DNA of 64,000 nucleotides, taken from the NCBI RefSeq assembly GCF_025061645.1, contig NZ_JANYMP010000002.1, forward strand, positions 684,494 to 748,493. Reading direction: 5' to 3'. This DNA is from Umezawaea endophytica. GTDB lineage: Bacteria > Actinomycetota > Actinomycetes > Mycobacteriales > Pseudonocardiaceae. The notes below the pieces were generated by a model. That model had not been told where the DNA came from. It did not search any database and saw only the letters and a program-made list of their open reading frames with translations. How positions within the stretch are numbered: the first letter of the stretch is position 1; each line of letters begins with the position of its first letter. Shown here piece by piece: positions 36,904 through 49,409 of this stretch. The translations under genes were made by a program, and so were the position numbers.

Positions 36904-38370
36904 GTGACCCGCAGTTACCAGATTCGCACGTTCGGGTGCCAGATGAACGTGCACGACTCCGAGCGCCTCGCGGGCCTGCTGGAGGACGCCGGCTACGCGC
37001 CCGCCACCGGGGACGACGCGCCGGACGTGGTCGTGTTCAACACCTGCGCGGTCCGGGAGAACGCCGACAACAAGCTGTACGGGACGCTGGGGCACCTCGC
37101 GCCCGCCAAGACCGCGAACCCGGACATGCAGATCGCCGTCGGCGGCTGCCTGGCCCAGAAGGACCAGAAGGAGATCGTCCGCCGCGCGCCGTGGGTGGAC
37201 GTCGTCTTCGGCACCCACAACCTGGGGTCGCTGCCGGTGCTGCTCGAACGCGCCCGGCACAACCAGGAGGCCCAGGTCGAGCTGCTCGACTCCCTGGAGA
37301 CCTTCCCGTCGACCCTGCCCGCGAAGCGCGACTCGGCGTACTCGGGCTGGGTGTCGGTGTCGGTGGGCTGCAACAACACGTGCACGTTCTGCATCGTCCC
37401 GTCGCTGCGCGGCAAGGAGAAGGACCGCCGCCCCGGCGACGTGCTCGCCGAGGTCCAGGCGCTGGTGGACCAGGGCGTGCTGGAGGTGACGCTGCTCGGC
37501 CAGAACGTCAACTCCTACGGCGTCGAGTTCGGCGACCGGCTCGCGTTCGGCAAGCTGCTGCGCGCGACGGGCGCGATCGAGGGCCTGGAGCGCGTGCGGT
37601 TCACGTCGCCGCACCCGAAGGACTTCACCGACGACGTGATCGCGGCGATGGCCGAGACGCCGAACGTGTGCCACTCGCTGCACATGCCGCTCCAGTCCGG
37701 CTCCGACCGGCTGCTCAAGGAGATGCGCCGCTCGTACCGCTCGGCCAAGTACTTGTCGATCCTGGACAAGGTGCGCGAGGCGATGCCGGACGCGGCCATC
37801 ACCACCGACATCATCGTCGGCTTCCCCGGCGAGACCGAGGAGGACTTCCAGGCGACCCTCGACGTCGTCCGCCGGTCGCGGTTCACCAACGCGTTCACGT
37901 TCCAGTACTCCAAGCGCCCTGGCACGCCCGCCGCGTCGCTGCCGGACCAGTTGCCGAAGAAGGTCGTGCAGGAGCGCTTCGACCGGCTGATCGAGCTCCA
38001 GGAGGCCATGGCGCTGGAGCTGAACCAGGAGCAGGTCGGCCGCAAGATCGAGGTGCTGGTCGCCACCGGCGAGGGCAAGCGGGACGCCGAGACCCTGCGA
38101 CTCAGCGGACGCGCCCGCGACGGCCGTCTGGTGCACTTCACGCCCGGCGACGCGTCGGTGCGGCCCGGTGATGTCGTGGAGACCGTCGTGACCTACGGCG
38201 CGCCGCACTACGTGGTCGCCGACGGCCCGTTGATCAGCCATCGGCGCACCAAGGCCGGGGACCAGTCCGAGGCCGGTATCAAGCCCAAGACGCCCGGCAC
38301 GGCGTTGGGCCTGCCCTCGTTCGGGGCTCCCGCGCCGCTGCCGGTGGTGGCCGGGTGCGGCGTCCAGTGA
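36904..38370 (+). CDS. miaB: tRNA-2-methylthio-N6-dimethylallyladenosine synthase
   Basis: The 488-residue radical-SAM enzyme adds the methylthio group to i6A37 of tRNA. The N-terminal cluster cysteines are in [16 protein letters not shown] and VGGCLAQK. The SAM cluster is [12 protein letters not shown], and a C-terminal TRAM domain is present, followed by an uncommon proline-rich tail of about 40 residues. GTG 36904 has GGAAGG nine bases upstream; ATG 36895 touches that site and is less likely. The next gene overlaps its stop (GTGA). It acts after MiaA, encoded at 41574 in the same block. Confidence 0.95.
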
Positions 38371-38855
38371 CCGGTGAGTCCGATGATCTGTCCCGGTTGA
38401 GGGACGAGATCGACCAGGTGGGTGTCTCGGCGGCCAAGCGCGTCGATCCCGGTACCGGGGCGTTGGTGATCGCGGTGGCGGTGTTCGCGCTGCTCGTGGC
38501 CCAGTTGTTGCCTTGGGCGGGCGCGGCGCGGGGGTGGGAGATCCTGCTCGGCGAGATCCCCGACGGGGAGGTCGTGGGGGCGTTGCCGAAGATGTTCGCG
38601 TTTGCTTCGGTGATCGCTGGGGTTTTGTTGTCGGCGTTGAGTTTGATCCTGCGTCGGTGGGCGTTGGTGTGGTTTTGTGCGTTGGGGTGTTTTGTGGCTT
38701 CGGTTTCCGGGGTTTTGTCTATTTGGACGCAGCAGACGACTACTAGTCACGCGCCTGGGCCCGGGCCGGGGGTTGGGCTGATTGTTGCTGTGGTGGCGGT
38801 GGTTGTGTTGTTGGTGATGTGGCTTCGGTTGGCGGCTTCTCGGTCGGGGCTTTGA
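38367..38855 (+). CDS. Conserved membrane protein after miaB (Rv2732c-like)
   Basis: The 162-residue protein has a charged N-terminal segment ([21 protein letters not shown]) and four predicted spans. Its position directly behind miaB matches the conserved mycobacterial gene Rv2732c, of unknown function. GTG 38367 overlaps the miaB stop by four bases; an earlier GTG at 38355 would add four residues. From about 38610 the codons shift sharply to T- and G-ending forms (GTT, TTT, TGT, TTG), unlike the rest of the window, just before the palindromic elements. Confidence 0.82.
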
Positions 38856-38895
38856 GGGTTGGTGGGTTGAGGGTCGGGTTGGTGGGGGTCTTTTG

Positions 38896-39000
38896 CCACC
38901 CCGCTCGCGCAATTGTCTCCATGGCTTTCCCGCTTTGTCAAGGCGGGAAAGATGCCTTGACAAAGCGGGAAAGCCATGAGGGCGCTGGGGATCGGGGCGG
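38896..39000 (+). repeat. Palindromic element, left copy
   Basis: About 105 bp made of an outer segment CCACCCCGCTCGCGCAATT (38896-38914), a perfect hairpin with 24-bp arms (38921-38944 with 38954-38977) and nine-base loop, and an inner GAGGGCGCTGGGGATCGG segment. The right copy at 39190-39294 is the same element inverted, with a changed but still fully paired stem. The 39001-39189 spacer between copies has no gene I can support. Confidence 0.85.
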
Positions 39001-39189
39001 CGGCGGGGGAATGCAAAAGACCCGTAAACGTGCGGTGGTGCGGTGGTCCGGTTTAAGGCGCAGGTCGCGGCTCGGGTAGGTCGTCGGGTGCGGTTTGTGG
39101 CGTCCCGGCTTGGTCTGCCTGTGTCATCTTTTGCTCTAGAAATTGACCACGACGGCACTGCCACCTCTCGTAGTGCCAGAACCCCCCGC

Positions 39190-39294
39190 CCGCCCCGATC
39201 CCCAGCGCCCTCACTTCCCGTTTTCTTTGTCAAGGCATCTTTCCCGCCTTGACAAAGAAAACGGGAAGTAGAGATAATTGCGCGAGCGGGGTGG
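39190..39294 (-). repeat. Palindromic element, right inverted copy
   Basis: Inverted partner of 38896-39000. The outer 19 bases (39276-39294) and inner 23 bases (39190-39212) are exact complements of the left copy. Its own hairpin has 24-bp perfect arms (39213-39236 with 39246-39269) around the complementary nine-base loop. The outer half of the stem differs in sequence from the left copy, but both sides changed together. Confidence 0.85.
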
Positions 39295-39307
39295 GCACAA
39301 CGAAAAA

Positions 39308-39340
39308 ACGGGCGCCCCCCAACCAGCAAGGGGCGCCCGT
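39308..39340 (-). terminator. Intrinsic terminator of the DUF349 gene
   Basis: An 11-bp GC stem (39308-39318 with 39330-39340), followed on the minus strand by a run of six T. It lies 11 bp after the DUF349 stop and is the best canonical terminator in the window. Confidence 0.9.
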
Positions 39341-39351
39341 CCACAAAAAAC

Positions 39352-40686
39352 CTACCGAGTAGCCACAGCCGCCTCAGCAGCAGACAACCACTCCCGCCAC
39401 TGCTTGGCCTGCGCCTCAGCCTGCTCAGCCCGCCGCTTGTCCCCAGCCGACCGAGCCTTCTCAGCCTGAGCCTCGAACTGCTCCACCCGCTCCCGGAACT
39501 GCGCCACCCTGGCCTCGGCCTCGGGATCCGACCTGCGCCACTGCGCGTCGACAGCCCCGCGGACCTTCTCCTCGATCGCGCGCAGCTTCCCCTCCAGGTC
39601 GCGGACCCGCTCGCGGGGGACCTTCCCGATCGCGTCCCAGCGCTCCTGGATCTTGTAGAGCTGGTTCCTGGCGGCCTCCAGGTCGCCGGACGGGTCGATC
39701 GCCTCCGCCTCGGCCAGCAGCGCTTCCTTGAGCTGCGCGTTCGTGCCGAACTCCGCGTCGCGCTCGTTGAAGGCCTCGGATCGGCGGGCGAAGAACGCGT
39801 CCTGGGCGGCGCGGAAGCGCTGCCAGAGCACGTCGTCGGCCTCCTTGGGAGCCCGTCCCGCGGCCTTCCACTCGACCATGAGGTCCTTGTAGCGACCCGC
39901 CGTGGGGCCCCAGTCGTCGGACTGGATGAGCTTCTCGGCCTCTTCGACCAGTTCCTGCTTGCGGTTCTTCGCCACGCCGCGCTGGCGGTCGAGGTCCGCG
40001 AAGTGCGAGCCGCGACGGCGGTTGAACGCGTCGCGCGCCTTGGAGAACCGCCGCCACAACTGCTCGTCGGTCTTGCGGTCGACGCCGCGGATGGTCTTCC
40101 ACTCGTCGAGGATCTGCCGCAGCCGGTCGCCGGTGGTCTTCCACTGGGTCGACTCGTTGGCGAGCGTCTCGGCCTCTTCGACCAGTTCCTGCTTGCGCGC
40201 CACGGACTGGGTGCGCGCGGCCTCCTTGGCCGTCTTGGCCTTCTCCAGGCCTTCCTCGGCCTTGGCCAGCACGTGGTCGACGCGCTTGGCCAGCGCCTCC
40301 AGGTCGCCGACGACCGCGGCGTCCTTCAGCGTCTCCCGCACGTGCTTCGCGCTCGTGAGCGCGTGCTTCGGGTCGCCCGCCCCGGAGGACAGCCGCGCCA
40401 CGAGCAGCTCCACCTCGGTGCGCAGGTCGTCGAACCGGCGCGCGAAGTGCGCGAGGCCCTCCTCGGGCTCGCCCGCCTGCCAGGACCCGACGACCCGCTC
40501 GCCGTCGGCCGTCTTGACGTAGACGGTGCCGTCCGCGTCCACGCGTCCCCAGCGGTCAGGGTGGTCCGACGCCACGGGGACCGGCGGAGCGGCCACCGGG
40601 GCGCTCTCCTGCTTCGTTCCCTCGATCACCGTTGTCGTGCCGCCACTGTCACCAGTGGTCTCCGGTGTCGTCTCGTGCTCCGTCAT
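39352..40686 (-). CDS. DUF349 domain protein
   Basis: The 444-residue, highly charged, helical protein holds several DUF349 repeats, each with the W-K-x-x-G-x-x-P/V-K-x-x-D-x-x-L-W-x-R-F pattern. Examples are LDEWKTIRGVDRKTDEQLWRRFSKARD and MVEWKAAGRAPKEADDVLWQRF. The N-terminus is proline/threonine-rich (residues 1-40) and an alanine-rich coiled coil ends it. It corresponds to mycobacterial Rv2731. Function is unsettled, though relatives have been linked to DNA or ribosome-associated roles. ATG 40686 is favoured over an upstream start. The 3' end of the coding strand shows T-ending codons similar to the facing gene across the palindromes. Confidence 0.85.
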   Translation of the reverse strand: MTEHETTPETTGDSGGTTTVIEGTKQESAPVAAPPVPVASDHPDRWGRVDADGTVYVKTADGERVVGSWQAGEPEEGLAHFARRFDDLRTEVELLVARLSSGAGDPKHALTSAKHVRETLKDAAVVGDLEALAKRVDHVLAKAEEGLEKAKTAKEAARTQSVARKQELVEEAETLANESTQWKTTGDRLRQILDEWKTIRGVDRKTDEQLWRRFSKARDAFNRRRGSHFADLDRQRGVAKNRKQELVEEAEKLIQSDDWGPTAGRYKDLMVEWKAAGRAPKEADDVLWQRFRAAQDAFFARRSEAFNERDAEFGTNAQLKEALLAEAEAIDPSGDLEAARNQLYKIQERWDAIGKVPRERVRDLEGKLRAIEEKVRGAVDAQWRRSDPEAEARVAQFRERVEQFEAQAEKARSAGDKRRAEQAEAQAKQWREWLSAAEAAVATR

Positions 40687-40869
40687 CGCCGGCTTCCTCC
40701 TCGCCTGCCCACTTCGTGGTGCCCGTGCCAACCACGGGCGCCCCGCCACCGGCGGGGCCCAGCACCGAGTACCTGGACCGTCTCATCGTCTCCAGTACCC
40801 CGCGCGCATTCAAACAGGTCAGAGCTCAGCTCGGTACTGCGGTGTCGAAGATGGGTAGCGTCACCCGGT

Positions 40870-47422: not shown

Positions 47423-48448
47423 GTGCGCCTTCTCGCCTTAGTCGGAGTTCTGACGATCGTCACGGCCGGGTCCGCCACCGCGGACCCGGCCGCTCCGGTT
47501 CCGCTCTGCACCGTCACCGACCAACGCCTGGAAGAACTCTCCGGCCTGGCCTCGGACGGCGACCGCCTGTACGCGGTCAACGACAGCGACAACGGCACCA
47601 TCGCCGTCCAGGTGATAGGCCGCGACTGCGAGATCCAGGACACCATCACCGCCCCGGTCAACCCGTTCGACGTGGAAGACCTGGCCCTGGGCCAGGACGG
47701 CAGGCTCTGGCTGGCGGACACAGGCGACAACGGCAAGTCCAGGGAAACCGTAGGACTGCACGCGGTCTCCCAGGACGGCACTTCAGAACTCTTCAGACTC
47801 ACCTACCCGGACGGCAAGCACGACGCCGAAGCACTACTGCTGGACCAGCAGGGAATCCCGTACATCATCACCAAGGAAACCCTCGGCTCAGCACTGGTCT
47901 ACCGCCCAACAGCCCCACTGGTACCGGGCACCACAGCACCACTGGAACAGGTCGCCAGGGTCTACATCAAGGGCACGGATACCCCAGGCGGCCCTCTGAA
48001 GAGTTCCGTGGTCACCCGAGTAGTCACCGGCGGAGCCGTCTCACACGACGGCAAAGTACTAGCGCTACGCACCTACACAGACGCCTACCTGTTCCCAATA
48101 ACAGACGGCGACCTAGTCAAAGCCCTGGACGCGGAACCGGTGCAAATCCCACTACCAAACGAAGAACAGGGCGAAGCAATAACCTTCGACCCCGACGGCA
48201 CCCTGCTCTCAGCATCGGAATTCGGCAAGAGCACAGAGTCAACCATCACCACGATCACGGGCGCAGCAGCACTGGCAACACCAGCACCACCATCCACAAC
48301 AGCCCAACCAGCCCAAACAGGCGACAACGCCTCAGCAGCCCCACTACCCACCCAAGAAAAAACCGAACTGTGGCCAGCAATCGCCCTAGGCACAGCAGCC
48401 CTGGTCCTAATAGCCGCCTCCGTACGCCGCTCCCGCCGCAAGGCTTAA
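47423..48448 (+). CDS. Exported propeller-like protein anchored at the C-terminus
   Basis: The 341-residue protein starts with a Sec signal (LLALVGVLTIVTAGSATA), then a domain of about 250 residues with repeated D-G-x-L-W/Y strands (GDRLYAVNDSDNG, DLALGQDGRLWLADTGDN, FDPDGTLLSASEFG), suggesting a beta-propeller. A Pro/Thr/Ala linker and a C-terminal membrane span (about 315-333) with an RRSRRK end follow. It should face outward. From about base 47750 its wobble positions shift to A (CCA, ACA, GCA), unusual for this genome. GTG 47423 is two bases after the hflX stop. Function is unknown. Confidence 0.78.
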   Translation: MRLLALVGVLTIVTAGSATADPAAPVPLCTVTDQRLEELSGLASDGDRLYAVNDSDNGTIAVQVIGRDCEIQDTITAPVNPFDVEDLALGQDGRLWLADTGDNGKSRETVGLHAVSQDGTSELFRLTYPDGKHDAEALLLDQQGIPYIITKETLGSALVYRPTAPLVPGTTAPLEQVARVYIKGTDTPGGPLKSSVVTRVVTGGAVSHDGKVLALRTYTDAYLFPITDGDLVKALDAEPVQIPLPNEEQGEAITFDPDGTLLSASEFGKSTESTITTITGAAALATPAPPSTTAQPAQTGDNASAAPLPTQEKTELWPAIALGTAALVLIAASVRRSRRKA

Positions 48449-48620
48449 AACCCGCACCGCCGCACCACCATCACGGCACCGCCAGTGCCTGAATCTCGCA
48501 CCGCACACTAACCGTCACGACGCCGGCAGTGCCTGAAACTCGCACCGCACCTCATCCGCCACGACGCCGGCAGTGCCCGAAAACCCGCACCGAACCCACC
48601 CGGCACGGCACCTTCCAACC
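48448..48620. repeat. 44-bp tandem repeat, about four units
   Basis: Units start at 48448, 48492, 48536 and 48580. Each is 44 bases and contains AAACTCGCACCGC, ACGACGCCGGCAGTGCC or close variants; units 2 and 3 are most alike and unit 4 is partial. They begin at the stop of the exported-protein gene and fill most of the gap to lexA. I see no hairpin or gene in 48449-48707. Confidence 0.8.
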
Positions 48621-48707
48621 AATCCCTGACCAGCCGGCGGCTTTTAATCCCTTACCCACACCCCCGGCCCACCCCACCCCCGGCCCGGCCCGGCCCAACA
48701 ACCCCAA

Positions 48708-49409
48708 CTACAGCCGACGCAGCACAGCCACAACCTTGCCCAGAATGCTCGCCTCATCACCCAAAATGGGCTCATACGCCGCGTTGTGCGGCATCAACCA
48801 CACGTGCTCAGCCGTCCGCTTGAACGTCTTCACCGTCGCCTCACCGTCGATCATCGCCGCCACCACGTCCCCGTTGTCCGCGGTGGGCTGCTGACGAATC
48901 ACCACCCAGTCCCCATCGGTGATGGCGGCGTCGACCATCGAATCCCCGACGACCTTCAGCAGGAACAGCTCCCCCTCGCCCACGATCTCGCGCGGTAGCG
49001 GGAACACGTCCTCGATCGACTCCTCGGCCAGGATCGGCCCACCGGCCGCGATCCGGCCCACCATGGGCACGTACGCGGGGGTCGGCTTGTGGCTCGGGTC
49101 CATGCCCGCGTCGATCTCGGTCGGCAGCACGCCGACGGCGCGCGGCCGGTTCGGGTCGCGGCGCAGGAAGCCCTTGCGCTCGAGCGCGCGGAGCTGGTGG
49201 GCCACGGACGAGGTGGACGTCAGGCCGACGGCCTCACCGATCTCGCGGACGCTGGGCGGGTAGCCGAAGCGGTCCAGCCAGTCCCTGATGACGTCGAGCA
49301 CCTTGCGCTGGCGGAGCGTGAGACCCGCGTTGCCCGCGATGTCCGTCTGCTGGGTGAGGGCGGGGTCACCGGCCGCGGTGTCCTGGTCCTCGGTCGTCTT
49401 GCGCACCAC
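48708..49409 (-). CDS. lexA: LexA repressor
   Basis: The 233-residue SOS repressor has an N-terminal winged helix (about 30-95, with [24 protein letters not shown]) and a C-terminal self-cleaving peptidase. The cleavage site is A122-G123 in GRIAAGGP and the catalytic dyad is S157 ([11 protein letters not shown]) and K194 (ATVKTF). RecA filaments trigger cleavage. The GTG at 49409 starts it, and its own SOS box lies 88 bp upstream (49497-49512). It is divergent from the LysM gene, which has a second box. Confidence 0.97.

What the first reader, a model, noticed from the sequence alone, without database searches (positions are those of the whole stretch)
38896..39294. Paired 105-bp inverted elements with compensated 24-bp hairpins
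Two inverted copies share outer and inner segments exactly, and each contains a perfect 24-bp palindrome. The outer half of the stem differs between copies yet stays fully paired in both. Such covariation means the fold, or the recombination that restores it, is selected. This looks like a dispersed palindromic (REP/MITE-like) element family or a structural RNA pair; the 189-bp core between copies is unexplained.
Basis: seen in the sequence. Interest (0 to 1): 0.7.

Follow-up and report, generated by a model that had tools for sequence, protein, structure and literature searches.

The report
Dispersed promoter hairpins with mutated flanks
The two mirrored repeats belong to a large family of promoter-like DNA hairpins scattered through this bacterial genome, related to a hairpin on transferable plasmids, and the DNA beside them has mutated fast and mostly on one strand, as if it were repeatedly left single-stranded.

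Summary
The two copies belong to a dispersed family: at least 71 distinct places in the own genome, at least 82 in a congener, and hits in 71 of 297 family genomes. A loop and inner stem are nearly invariant. The next 12 base pairs are hypervariable yet almost always perfectly paired.

Two findings explain more than REP/MITE does. (1) Nearly every copy reads TTGACA, then 18 or 19 bases, then xAYAAT on one strand. The variable stem is thus the length-fixed, sequence-free spacer of a sigma70-type promoter. (2) Most copies sit in a 'halo' of about 0.3-0.9 kb in which the opposite strand has lost C and A and gained G and T, at silent sites too, whatever the direction of the neighbouring genes. Polarised substitutions (C>T, C>G, A>G, G>T) look like single-strand DNA damage.

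Relatives lie near MobC/relaxase on actinobacterial plasmids and inside RepSA-type integrative elements. I read it as an escaped single-strand-DNA promoter (Frpo/ssi-like) hairpin. No Y1/RAYT transposase was found. Strand polarity is unresolved, and one halo in the window has no recognisable element.

The parts
38890..39009 (+). element copy 1 (family A), whole model match
   Evidence: R1 covariance model, 125.6 bits; 100%
39181..39300 (-). element copy 2 (family A), whole model match, inverted
   Evidence: R1 covariance model, 119.3 bits
38934..38964 (+). near-invariant inner hairpin of copy 1: 11-bp stem, 9-nt loop GGGAAAGAT
   Evidence: alignments
38921..38933 (+). 5' arm of the hypervariable, perfectly paired stem of copy 1
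38965..38977 (+). 3' arm of the hypervariable stem of copy 1
38936..38941 (-). -35 box TTGACA of copy 1 (reads leftward)
   Evidence: read
38912..38917 (-). -10 box GACAAT of copy 1, 18-bp spacer
   Evidence: read
39249..39254 (+). -35 box TTGACA of copy 2 (reads rightward)
   Evidence: read
39273..39278 (+). -10 box GATAAT of copy 2, 18-bp spacer
   Evidence: read
38439..39008 (+). halo of copy 1: + strand G/T-rich (300-bp windows with GT > 0.62), includes the 3' part of the neighbouring gene
39284..39466 (-). halo of copy 2: + strand A/C-rich (GT < 0.38), i.e. element strand G/T-rich
39010..39180 (.). stretch between the copies: overlap of the two halos, no gene called there
38367..38855 (+). 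neighbouring gene (membrane-protein-like by reading its sequence); its 3' part carries the left halo
39352..40749 (-). convergent neighbouring gene, product not identified here; its 3' end carries the right halo

Best explanation
The pair are two copies of a dispersed, promoter-bearing hairpin element. SHOWN by sequence: at least 71 places in this genome; an invariant inner hairpin carrying TTGACA; a sequence-free but length-fixed, perfectly paired stem; then a conserved AATTRTC motif that supplies a -10 box at 18-19 bp. Relatives of the hairpin lie near MobC/relaxase on actinobacterial plasmids and inside RepSA-type integrative elements. Flanks have substituted fast and with strand bias towards G/T on the strand opposite the promoter. 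INFERRED: the hairpin works like Frpo/ssi of conjugative plasmids. One strand, when single, folds so that the stem is a double-stranded -35 box plus spacer, and the bulged -10 region is already open, so RNA polymerase can start a transcript or primer there. The stem must therefore be a perfect duplex of fixed length with free sequence. In the chromosome the copies are selfish or neutral descendants whose neighbourhood is recurrently single-stranded on one strand (for example a gap left when the hairpin strand is displaced). This causes damage-type mutations within about 0.3-0.9 kb, and hairpin-templated correction may keep the arms identical.
For: Copies. Promoter: 54 of 55 own copies, with spacer 18 in 31, 19 in 22 and 17 in 1; G002 16 of 16 GACAAT at 19; 35 copies of other genera with spacer 19 in 29. 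Stem: columns 41-47 of a 63-sequence alignment show 237 two-sided changes, 1 one-sided, 3 broken. Halo. Polarised substitutions. Plasmid relatives: 33 records share the inner hairpin; the model R1 itself matches 5 of 14 opened plasmid loci at E < 0.001; in 9 of 9 opened plasmids with annotated relaxase or MobC the hairpin is 0.2-1.5 kb from MobC, in one orientation. Integrative elements: the hairpin lies about 200 bp inside the tRNA-end repeats of two RepSA/FtsK/integrase elements, R1 E = 5e-8 and 0.008. Frpo folds into a stem-loop with -35 and -10 boxes (passages of PMC9849209, and PMC11541004).
Against: Polarity is not coherent. The halo says the + strand is the exposed one and, if the hairpin lies in the leading region, the plasmid layout suggests + is the transferred strand. 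But the canonical -10 is on the - strand, and single-copy relatives have 33 A-C against 2 G-T mismatches in the + reading, which favours a folded - strand. Plasmid copies are inconclusive (A-C 7, G-T 4). The 9 plasmids share similar backbones, so they are not 9 independent cases, no nick site was mapped, and 4 of them do not match R1 at E < 0.001. An equally strong halo at 47.7-48.9 kb of the window has no recognisable element. 11 of 52 own copies have the opposite mean sign; 9 of these have a family-B element nearby and 2 (L034, L066) are inverted pairs, but L006, L007 and L016 have the same B arrangement without being exceptions. No transcription from single-stranded DNA was or could be tested.
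Confidence: 0.5

Rival explanations
1. Ordinary MITE or REP-like element mobilised in trans by a transposase, with compensated stems kept for transposition; the halo is incidental.
For: Dispersed, palindromic, intergenic, own-genome insertion at the window site; composite A+B units at fixed spacing look like mobile units.
Against: No Y1/RAYT transposase found in the genome (other transposase families were not searched). No clear target duplication at the sites viewed by eye, though diverged flanks hinder this. It does not explain the fixed promoter spacing or the halo.
Confidence: 0.15
2. Ordinary double-strand promoter or antisense-RNA element; transcription from it (R-loops, collisions with the convergent gene) causes the asymmetry.
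For: Good -35/-10 boxes; elements never lie between divergent genes (0 of 54 own, 0 of 16 G002); the left halo reaches further where the left gene is co-oriented and the right gene convergent.
Against: The promoter reads leftward, so the displaced strand would be -, but + is the mutated strand; the halo lies on both sides; third codon positions of genes on either strand are affected.
Confidence: 0.13
3. Structured RNA (3'-UTR element or terminator).
For: Stable fold, compensatory changes; 27 of 52 own copies with a left gene called lie within 150 bp of a + gene's end.
Against: Orientation relative to co-directional genes is about even (++ 11, -- 13). Almost no G-U in the variable stems: own set 553 WC, 3 G-T, 3 A-C, 5 other. 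No Rfam match at gathering score.
Confidence: 0.07
4. Reverse causality: strand-asymmetric zones (recombination hot spots between convergent genes) arise first, and elements of several families land in them in a preferred orientation.
For: A halo without an element exists in the window; families A and B occupy the same orthologous sites in different species.
Against: Gradients are centred on the elements. At the window site the two congeners without the element show no bias. Six other convergent gaps of at least 30 bp in the window have no halo.
Confidence: 0.15

Closest known systems
Frpo / ssi single-stranded-DNA promoters of the F and ColIb-P9 leading regions (passages read: PMC9849209, PMC11541004; the original Masai & Arai 1997 paper was seen only as a citation)
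   Same: non-coding hairpin that sets -35 TTGACA and a -10 box at promoter spacing; relatives sit near relaxase/MobC genes
   Different: here many chromosomal copies that drive no obvious gene; actinobacterial; sequence similarity to Frpo was not tested; strand polarity unresolved; no transcription data
Single-strand origins of rolling-circle plasmids and integrative elements (pSAM2-type AICEs); recalled
   Same: the hairpin lies inside RepSA/FtsK/integrase elements near an att repeat; the shared inner hairpin is also on 1.6-kb and 3.5-kb plasmids
   Different: no origin function shown; the dispersed copies are chromosomal; the two small plasmids do not match R1
REP/REPIN and RAYT
   Same: dispersed intergenic palindromes, sometimes in inverted pairs
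   Different: about 120 bp with promoter anatomy; no GTAG/CGTC tag in the consensus; no Y1 transposase found
MITEs and RU-type small mobile repeats of bacteria (search listing only)
   Same: short, non-coding, many copies, own-genome insertion
   Different: no parental transposase or target duplication found; mutation halo

Membership tests
REP/RAYT | dispersed high-copy extragenic palindromes | tested here: met
   intergenic in 53 of 54 by the crude gene caller
REP/RAYT | GTAG or CGTC tag at one end (feature taken from the title and listed abstract of PMC3733652) | tested here: not met
   neither word in the consensus of 51 copies, by inspection
REP/RAYT | Y1 (REP-associated tyrosine) transposase in the genome | tested here: not met
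   PF01797: 0 in own genome; control found in 5 of 14; genome is a 65-contig draft, 99.89% complete
Frpo/ssi ssDNA promoter | hairpin carrying -35 and -10 boxes at promoter spacing | tested here: met
   54 of 55 own, 16 of 16 G002; the -10 pattern used was permissive (about 3% by chance per copy, my estimate)
Frpo/ssi ssDNA promoter | lies in the leading region of conjugative elements | tested here: inconclusive
   plasmid relatives: 0.2-1.5 kb from MobC in one orientation, 9 of 9 with annotated relaxase or MobC, 5 of these 9 match R1 at E < 0.001, nick not mapped; the window copies themselves are chromosomal
Frpo/ssi ssDNA promoter | the transferred strand is the folded template | tested here: inconclusive
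   halo and gene order favour +; -10 box and mismatch types in single-copy relatives favour -
Frpo/ssi ssDNA promoter | RNA polymerase initiates on the single strand | not testable with these tools
   needs biochemistry
MITE | terminal inverted repeats with target-site duplication | tested here: inconclusive
   window and five other sites viewed by eye: insertion seen at the window site and at L056 and L059, no clear duplication, flanks diverged
Structured RNA family | match to a curated RNA family | tested here: not met
   0 at gathering score for the whole window; in the 501-bp E-value search the best sub-threshold hits were microRNA hairpin models

The most novel reading that the evidence does not exclude
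A conjugation-type single-strand-DNA promoter hairpin has escaped into actinobacterial chromosomes. At scores of sites per genome it causes recurrent exposure of one strand over about 1-2 kb, giving a genome-wide set of fixed, oriented, strand-specific mutation hot spots (C>T, C>G, A>G, G>T). Unrelated promoter hairpins (family B) do the same, so the cause is the promoter-in-a-hairpin design and not the sequence.
Probability: 0.35. Interest if true: 0.93.

Novelty: new variant of a known kind. Interest (0 to 1): 0.8.

Why it matters
If the halo is caused by the element, bacteria carry natural, oriented hot spots that mutate the ends of adjacent genes several-fold faster on one strand, a local mutator built into the chromosome. 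It would give a natural reporter of where and how often chromosomal DNA is single-stranded, and extend single-strand promoters from plasmid biology to chromosome evolution. It also offers a simple reason why such stems vary freely yet stay paired: they are promoter spacers of fixed length.

Tried and rejected
Rfam: no gathering-score hit in the window; in a 501-bp E-value search the best sub-threshold hits were microRNA hairpin models; 20 and 6 further loci gave nothing relevant to the hairpin (one RNase P gene lies near a relative). Replication strand: orientation of the 82 listed copies of the complete congener genome is not tied to replichores (best two-breakpoint score 20, shuffle mean 21.3, 195 of 300 shuffles reach it). 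Transcription direction of neighbours as the sole cause: rejected by third codon positions of genes on both strands. MFE and G-U counts on each strand: + folds better in most chromosomal copies, - in 22 of 31 single-copy relatives; confounded by the G/T-rich flanks. Nearest-neighbour identity as an age proxy: Spearman -0.33, p 0.015, but most of the very similar copies are composites with family B, so I draw no conclusion about age. Phage collection: no match with one single-copy relative as query. Paper searches for a prior description showed none in their listings; only CC-licensed PMC papers were searched.

Full report
OBSERVATION. Both copies, their perfect hairpins and the exchanged but still paired outer stem halves are present as described. 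The inner 33 nt are identical; the outer segments match at 96% and 91%, not exactly. Against shuffled sequence the core is far beyond chance.

A DISPERSED FAMILY. The window lies in an unnamed 11.0-Mb draft genome (65 contigs). A DNA search gave 83 matches on both strands from 40 scored of 125 candidates. The strict inner hairpin occurs at 28 places, with 0 for the reversed control. A covariance model R1, built from 63 copies of several genera, was run on the own genome and on the complete genome of a congener, G002. The printed list, cut at 150 rows, holds 68 distinct places in the own genome and 82 in G002; one search adds three more own places, so at least 71. The tool's totals are 144 and 150 matches, each from 150 scored candidates out of 2768 and 3444. 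They are capped and may count a hairpin on both strands (in the window each copy also has a weaker match on the opposite strand), so the true number lies at or above about 70-80 per genome and I do not know it. In 297 genomes of the family, 71 had a match, in 14 of 46 genera. The exact 31-nt core in named genomes came from Actinokineospora sp. NBRC 105648 and five Amycolatopsis genomes (13 stretches; the tool may leave out the own genome). The orthologous site of the window pair is 100 bp long in G002, and no copy is seen there in G001, G002 or the more distant G023.

ANATOMY. Among 51 own copies the inner hairpin TTTGTCAAGGC-GGGAAAGAT-GCCTTGACAAA is nearly invariant, and in 50 of 51 the next 12 base pairs outward are all Watson-Crick although their sequence differs among copies. 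In the 63-sequence alignment, seven variable columns (41-47) show 237 two-sided changes, 1 one-sided change and 3 broken pairs; the outermost columns 37-39 are less regular. A second count with a shifted frame and a narrower pattern gave 45 of 47 perfect and 45 distinct stems in the own genome, 13 of 13 in G002, 5 of 5 in G001, 7 of 7 in Actinokineospora, 14 of 19 in other genera, 1 of 5 in G011 and 1 of 14 for single-copy relatives.

A PROMOTER IN THE HAIRPIN. On the - strand of the element nearly every copy reads TTGACA, 18 or 19 bases, then xAYA(A/C)T. Own genome: 55 copies, one without a -10 match, spacer 18 in 31, 19 in 22, 17 in 1. G002: 16 of 16 GACAAT at 19. G001: 8, of which 7 at 19. 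Other genera: 35, of which 29 at 19, the rest 16, 17 or 20; a few of these have TTGACG or TTGACC. The hypervariable stem is thus the promoter spacer: its length is fixed, its letters are free.

THE HALO. Oriented by the element + strand, flanks of 54 own copies rise from GT 0.49-0.50 beyond 0.9 kb on the left (0.53 on the right) to 0.65-0.66 next to the element, on both sides; C falls from 0.33-0.35 to 0.22. Similar gradients are seen in G002 (16 copies), Amycolatopsis (7), Actinokineospora (7) and G001 (5), but in G001 and on the right side of G002 the peak lies 200-600 bp away, not next to the element. Of 52 own copies with full flanks 41 have the predicted mean sign (two dropped at contig ends; binomial p 3.6e-5, copies not independent), and 16 of 16 in G002. 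Of the 11 exceptions, nine (L003, L004, L005, L008, L011, L013, L017, L058, L073) have a family-B hairpin within about 260 bp in the orientation that predicts the reverse sign, and L034 and L066 are inverted pairs. L006, L007 and L016 have the same B arrangement and are not exceptions.

POLARISED SUBSTITUTIONS. At the window locus, sites where G001 and G002 agree and the own genome differs show, in the left flank 0-600 bp, C>T 42 against G>A 3 and C>G 24 against G>C 8. The rate is 0.23 per site next to the element and 0.02-0.03 beyond 900 bp. The right flank (read on the element strand) has C>T 9 against G>A 0 and C>G 9 against G>C 0 within 250 bp, with a rate of 0.15 falling to 0.04-0.06. G001- and G002-specific changes show nothing similar. 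Seven flanks at six other loci, 0-350 bp: C>T 67 v G>A 7; C>G 107 v G>C 19; A>G 17 v T>C 2; G>T 20 v C>A 6. The congeners' own changes lean slightly the other way: C>T 1 and 2 v G>A 11 and 16. Congener loci of five of the seven flanks had no family-A core; L058 (G001) and L060 (both) did, and family B is present in the congeners at L061 and L075. C>T, C>G, A>G and G>T are what deamination, abasic-site bypass and guanine oxidation of one exposed strand would leave (established knowledge; inference here).

NOT REPLICATION, NOT NEIGHBOUR TRANSCRIPTION ALONE. Orientation is not tied to replichores (82 copies). Contexts by a crude gene caller: own 54: convergent 28, both genes - 13, both + 11, one side missing 2, divergent 0; G002 16: 9, 3, 4, 0. 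Third codon positions read on the element + strand (own and G002 together, the three inverted pairs left out) have GT 0.83 within 250 bp on the left in + genes against 0.49 at 900-1400 bp, and 0.71 against 0.53 in - genes. So the effect follows the element, not the gene, although the left halo is longer in convergent contexts.

CONTROLS AND A COUNTER-EXAMPLE. In the window the only 300-bp windows with GT above 0.65 are at copy 1, and the only ones below 0.35 are at 48155-48766. Six other convergent gaps of at least 30 bp show no halo (GT 0.44-0.59 beside them). The 48-kb halo is as strong (G>A 55 v C>T 3 over 47.7-48.9 kb) but holds no family-A match, and the 901-bp query over it had no second match in the own genome. 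Either another kind of element or a lost one was there, or the process does not need a hairpin.

A SECOND FAMILY. An unrelated hairpin, family B (GTGGTCGATTTGACTTGGGG...TAYAAT...), is also dispersed (35, 48 and 42 match rows in G000, G001, G002, both strands counted, 40 candidates scored in each). Its promoter strand is A/C-rich (GT 0.23-0.38 at 75-150 bp), so again the opposite strand is G/T-rich (10 loci from each genome).

RELATIVES ON MOBILE ELEMENTS. A number of family genomes have a single imperfect copy. Of 30 such loci fetched, 19 with matching flanks were aligned; in these the hairpin lies about 0.2-0.5 kb from a conserved non-coding box, and in L126, left out of the alignment, about 0.93 kb. 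Two relatives lie about 200 bp inside one end of integrative elements that carry integrase, RepSA and FtsK genes and are bounded by direct repeats of a tRNA end: G120 (L251, tRNA-Lys, 38-bp repeat, R1 E = 5e-8) and G071 (L250, tRNA-Gly, 42-bp repeat, R1 E = 0.008). The own genome has a diverged one of its own (L248, E = 0.001). On plasmids, 33 records share the inner hairpin of the Gulosibacter copy over about 27-35% of the query (32 besides the query's own). I opened 14 plasmid loci. R1 matches five at E < 0.001 (L284, L288, L289, L292, L295), L283 weakly (0.06), and eight not convincingly, so for those the link rests on the inner hairpin alone. In 9 of 9 with annotated relaxase or MobC the hairpin is 0.2-1.5 kb from MobC and in one orientation, but these plasmids share similar backbones. 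The other five are two small plasmids of 1.6 and 3.5 kb, two Pseudonocardia plasmids and one Saccharopolyspora plasmid without a relaxase in the fetched stretch. The Cryobacterium plasmid copy keeps GATTGTC and a GACAAT box.

MECHANISM. F-plasmid Frpo folds into a stem-loop that restores -10 and -35 boxes and drives early expression from the transferred strand (passages of PMC9849209, and PMC11541004; the latter's main text has no hit for 'actinom' or 'actinobact'). The present hairpin has the same parts. The most likely reading is a single-strand promoter or primer site that escaped from mobile elements. How the chromosomal + strand becomes exposed is not shown. One model that fits the promoter strand, the halo and the mismatch bias of single-copy relatives is displacement of the - strand as the folding strand, leaving + as a gap. 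The plasmid gene order points the other way. This conflict is unresolved and is the main weakness.

WHAT IS KNOWN. I saw no description of these repeats or of such halos in the listings of seven searches of CC-licensed full texts; passages of two papers were read. Absence from that library is weak evidence. Membership: not REP/RAYT (tag and transposase not found); works like Frpo/ssi by anatomy, but membership is not established because single-strand initiation and polarity are untested.

Noticed in passing
window 47700-48900: Strong A/C-rich halo on the + strand with polarised G>A excess between a 341-aa gene and a lexA-like gene, without any recognisable hairpin; the gap holds a degenerate tandem repeat.
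   Followed up: partly
L252-L281 (G000, G001, G002): Second dispersed promoter-hairpin family B with its own halo; the own genome has composites with B about 150-250 bp from A.
   Followed up: partly
L119-L149, L150-L178: Conserved non-coding box TGCCGAACTTGGCTCTATGGGATCAAG plus GC-rich hairpin, often 0.2-0.5 kb from the single-copy hairpin at one end of integrative elements; unidentified.
   Followed up: partly
L144 (G294) and about 20 more places in that genome: A distantly related repeat (GTGTCAAGCGGTAAAGCGTGCTTGACAC) at 21 model matches in another genus, perfectly paired over a longer stem.
   Followed up: no
G001 copies L038, L042, L046, L050: Even the inner core co-varies in one congener: GTCAAGAC paired with GTCTTGAC (ATCTTGAC in L050) and a different loop, instead of GTCAAGGC...GCCTTGAC.
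   Followed up: no
L061, L059 and similar flanks: Flanking G/T-rich DNA often holds GGTTGCGTG and GCTGGTGG-like words (seen by eye); possible recombination motifs or mere by-product of composition.
   Followed up: no
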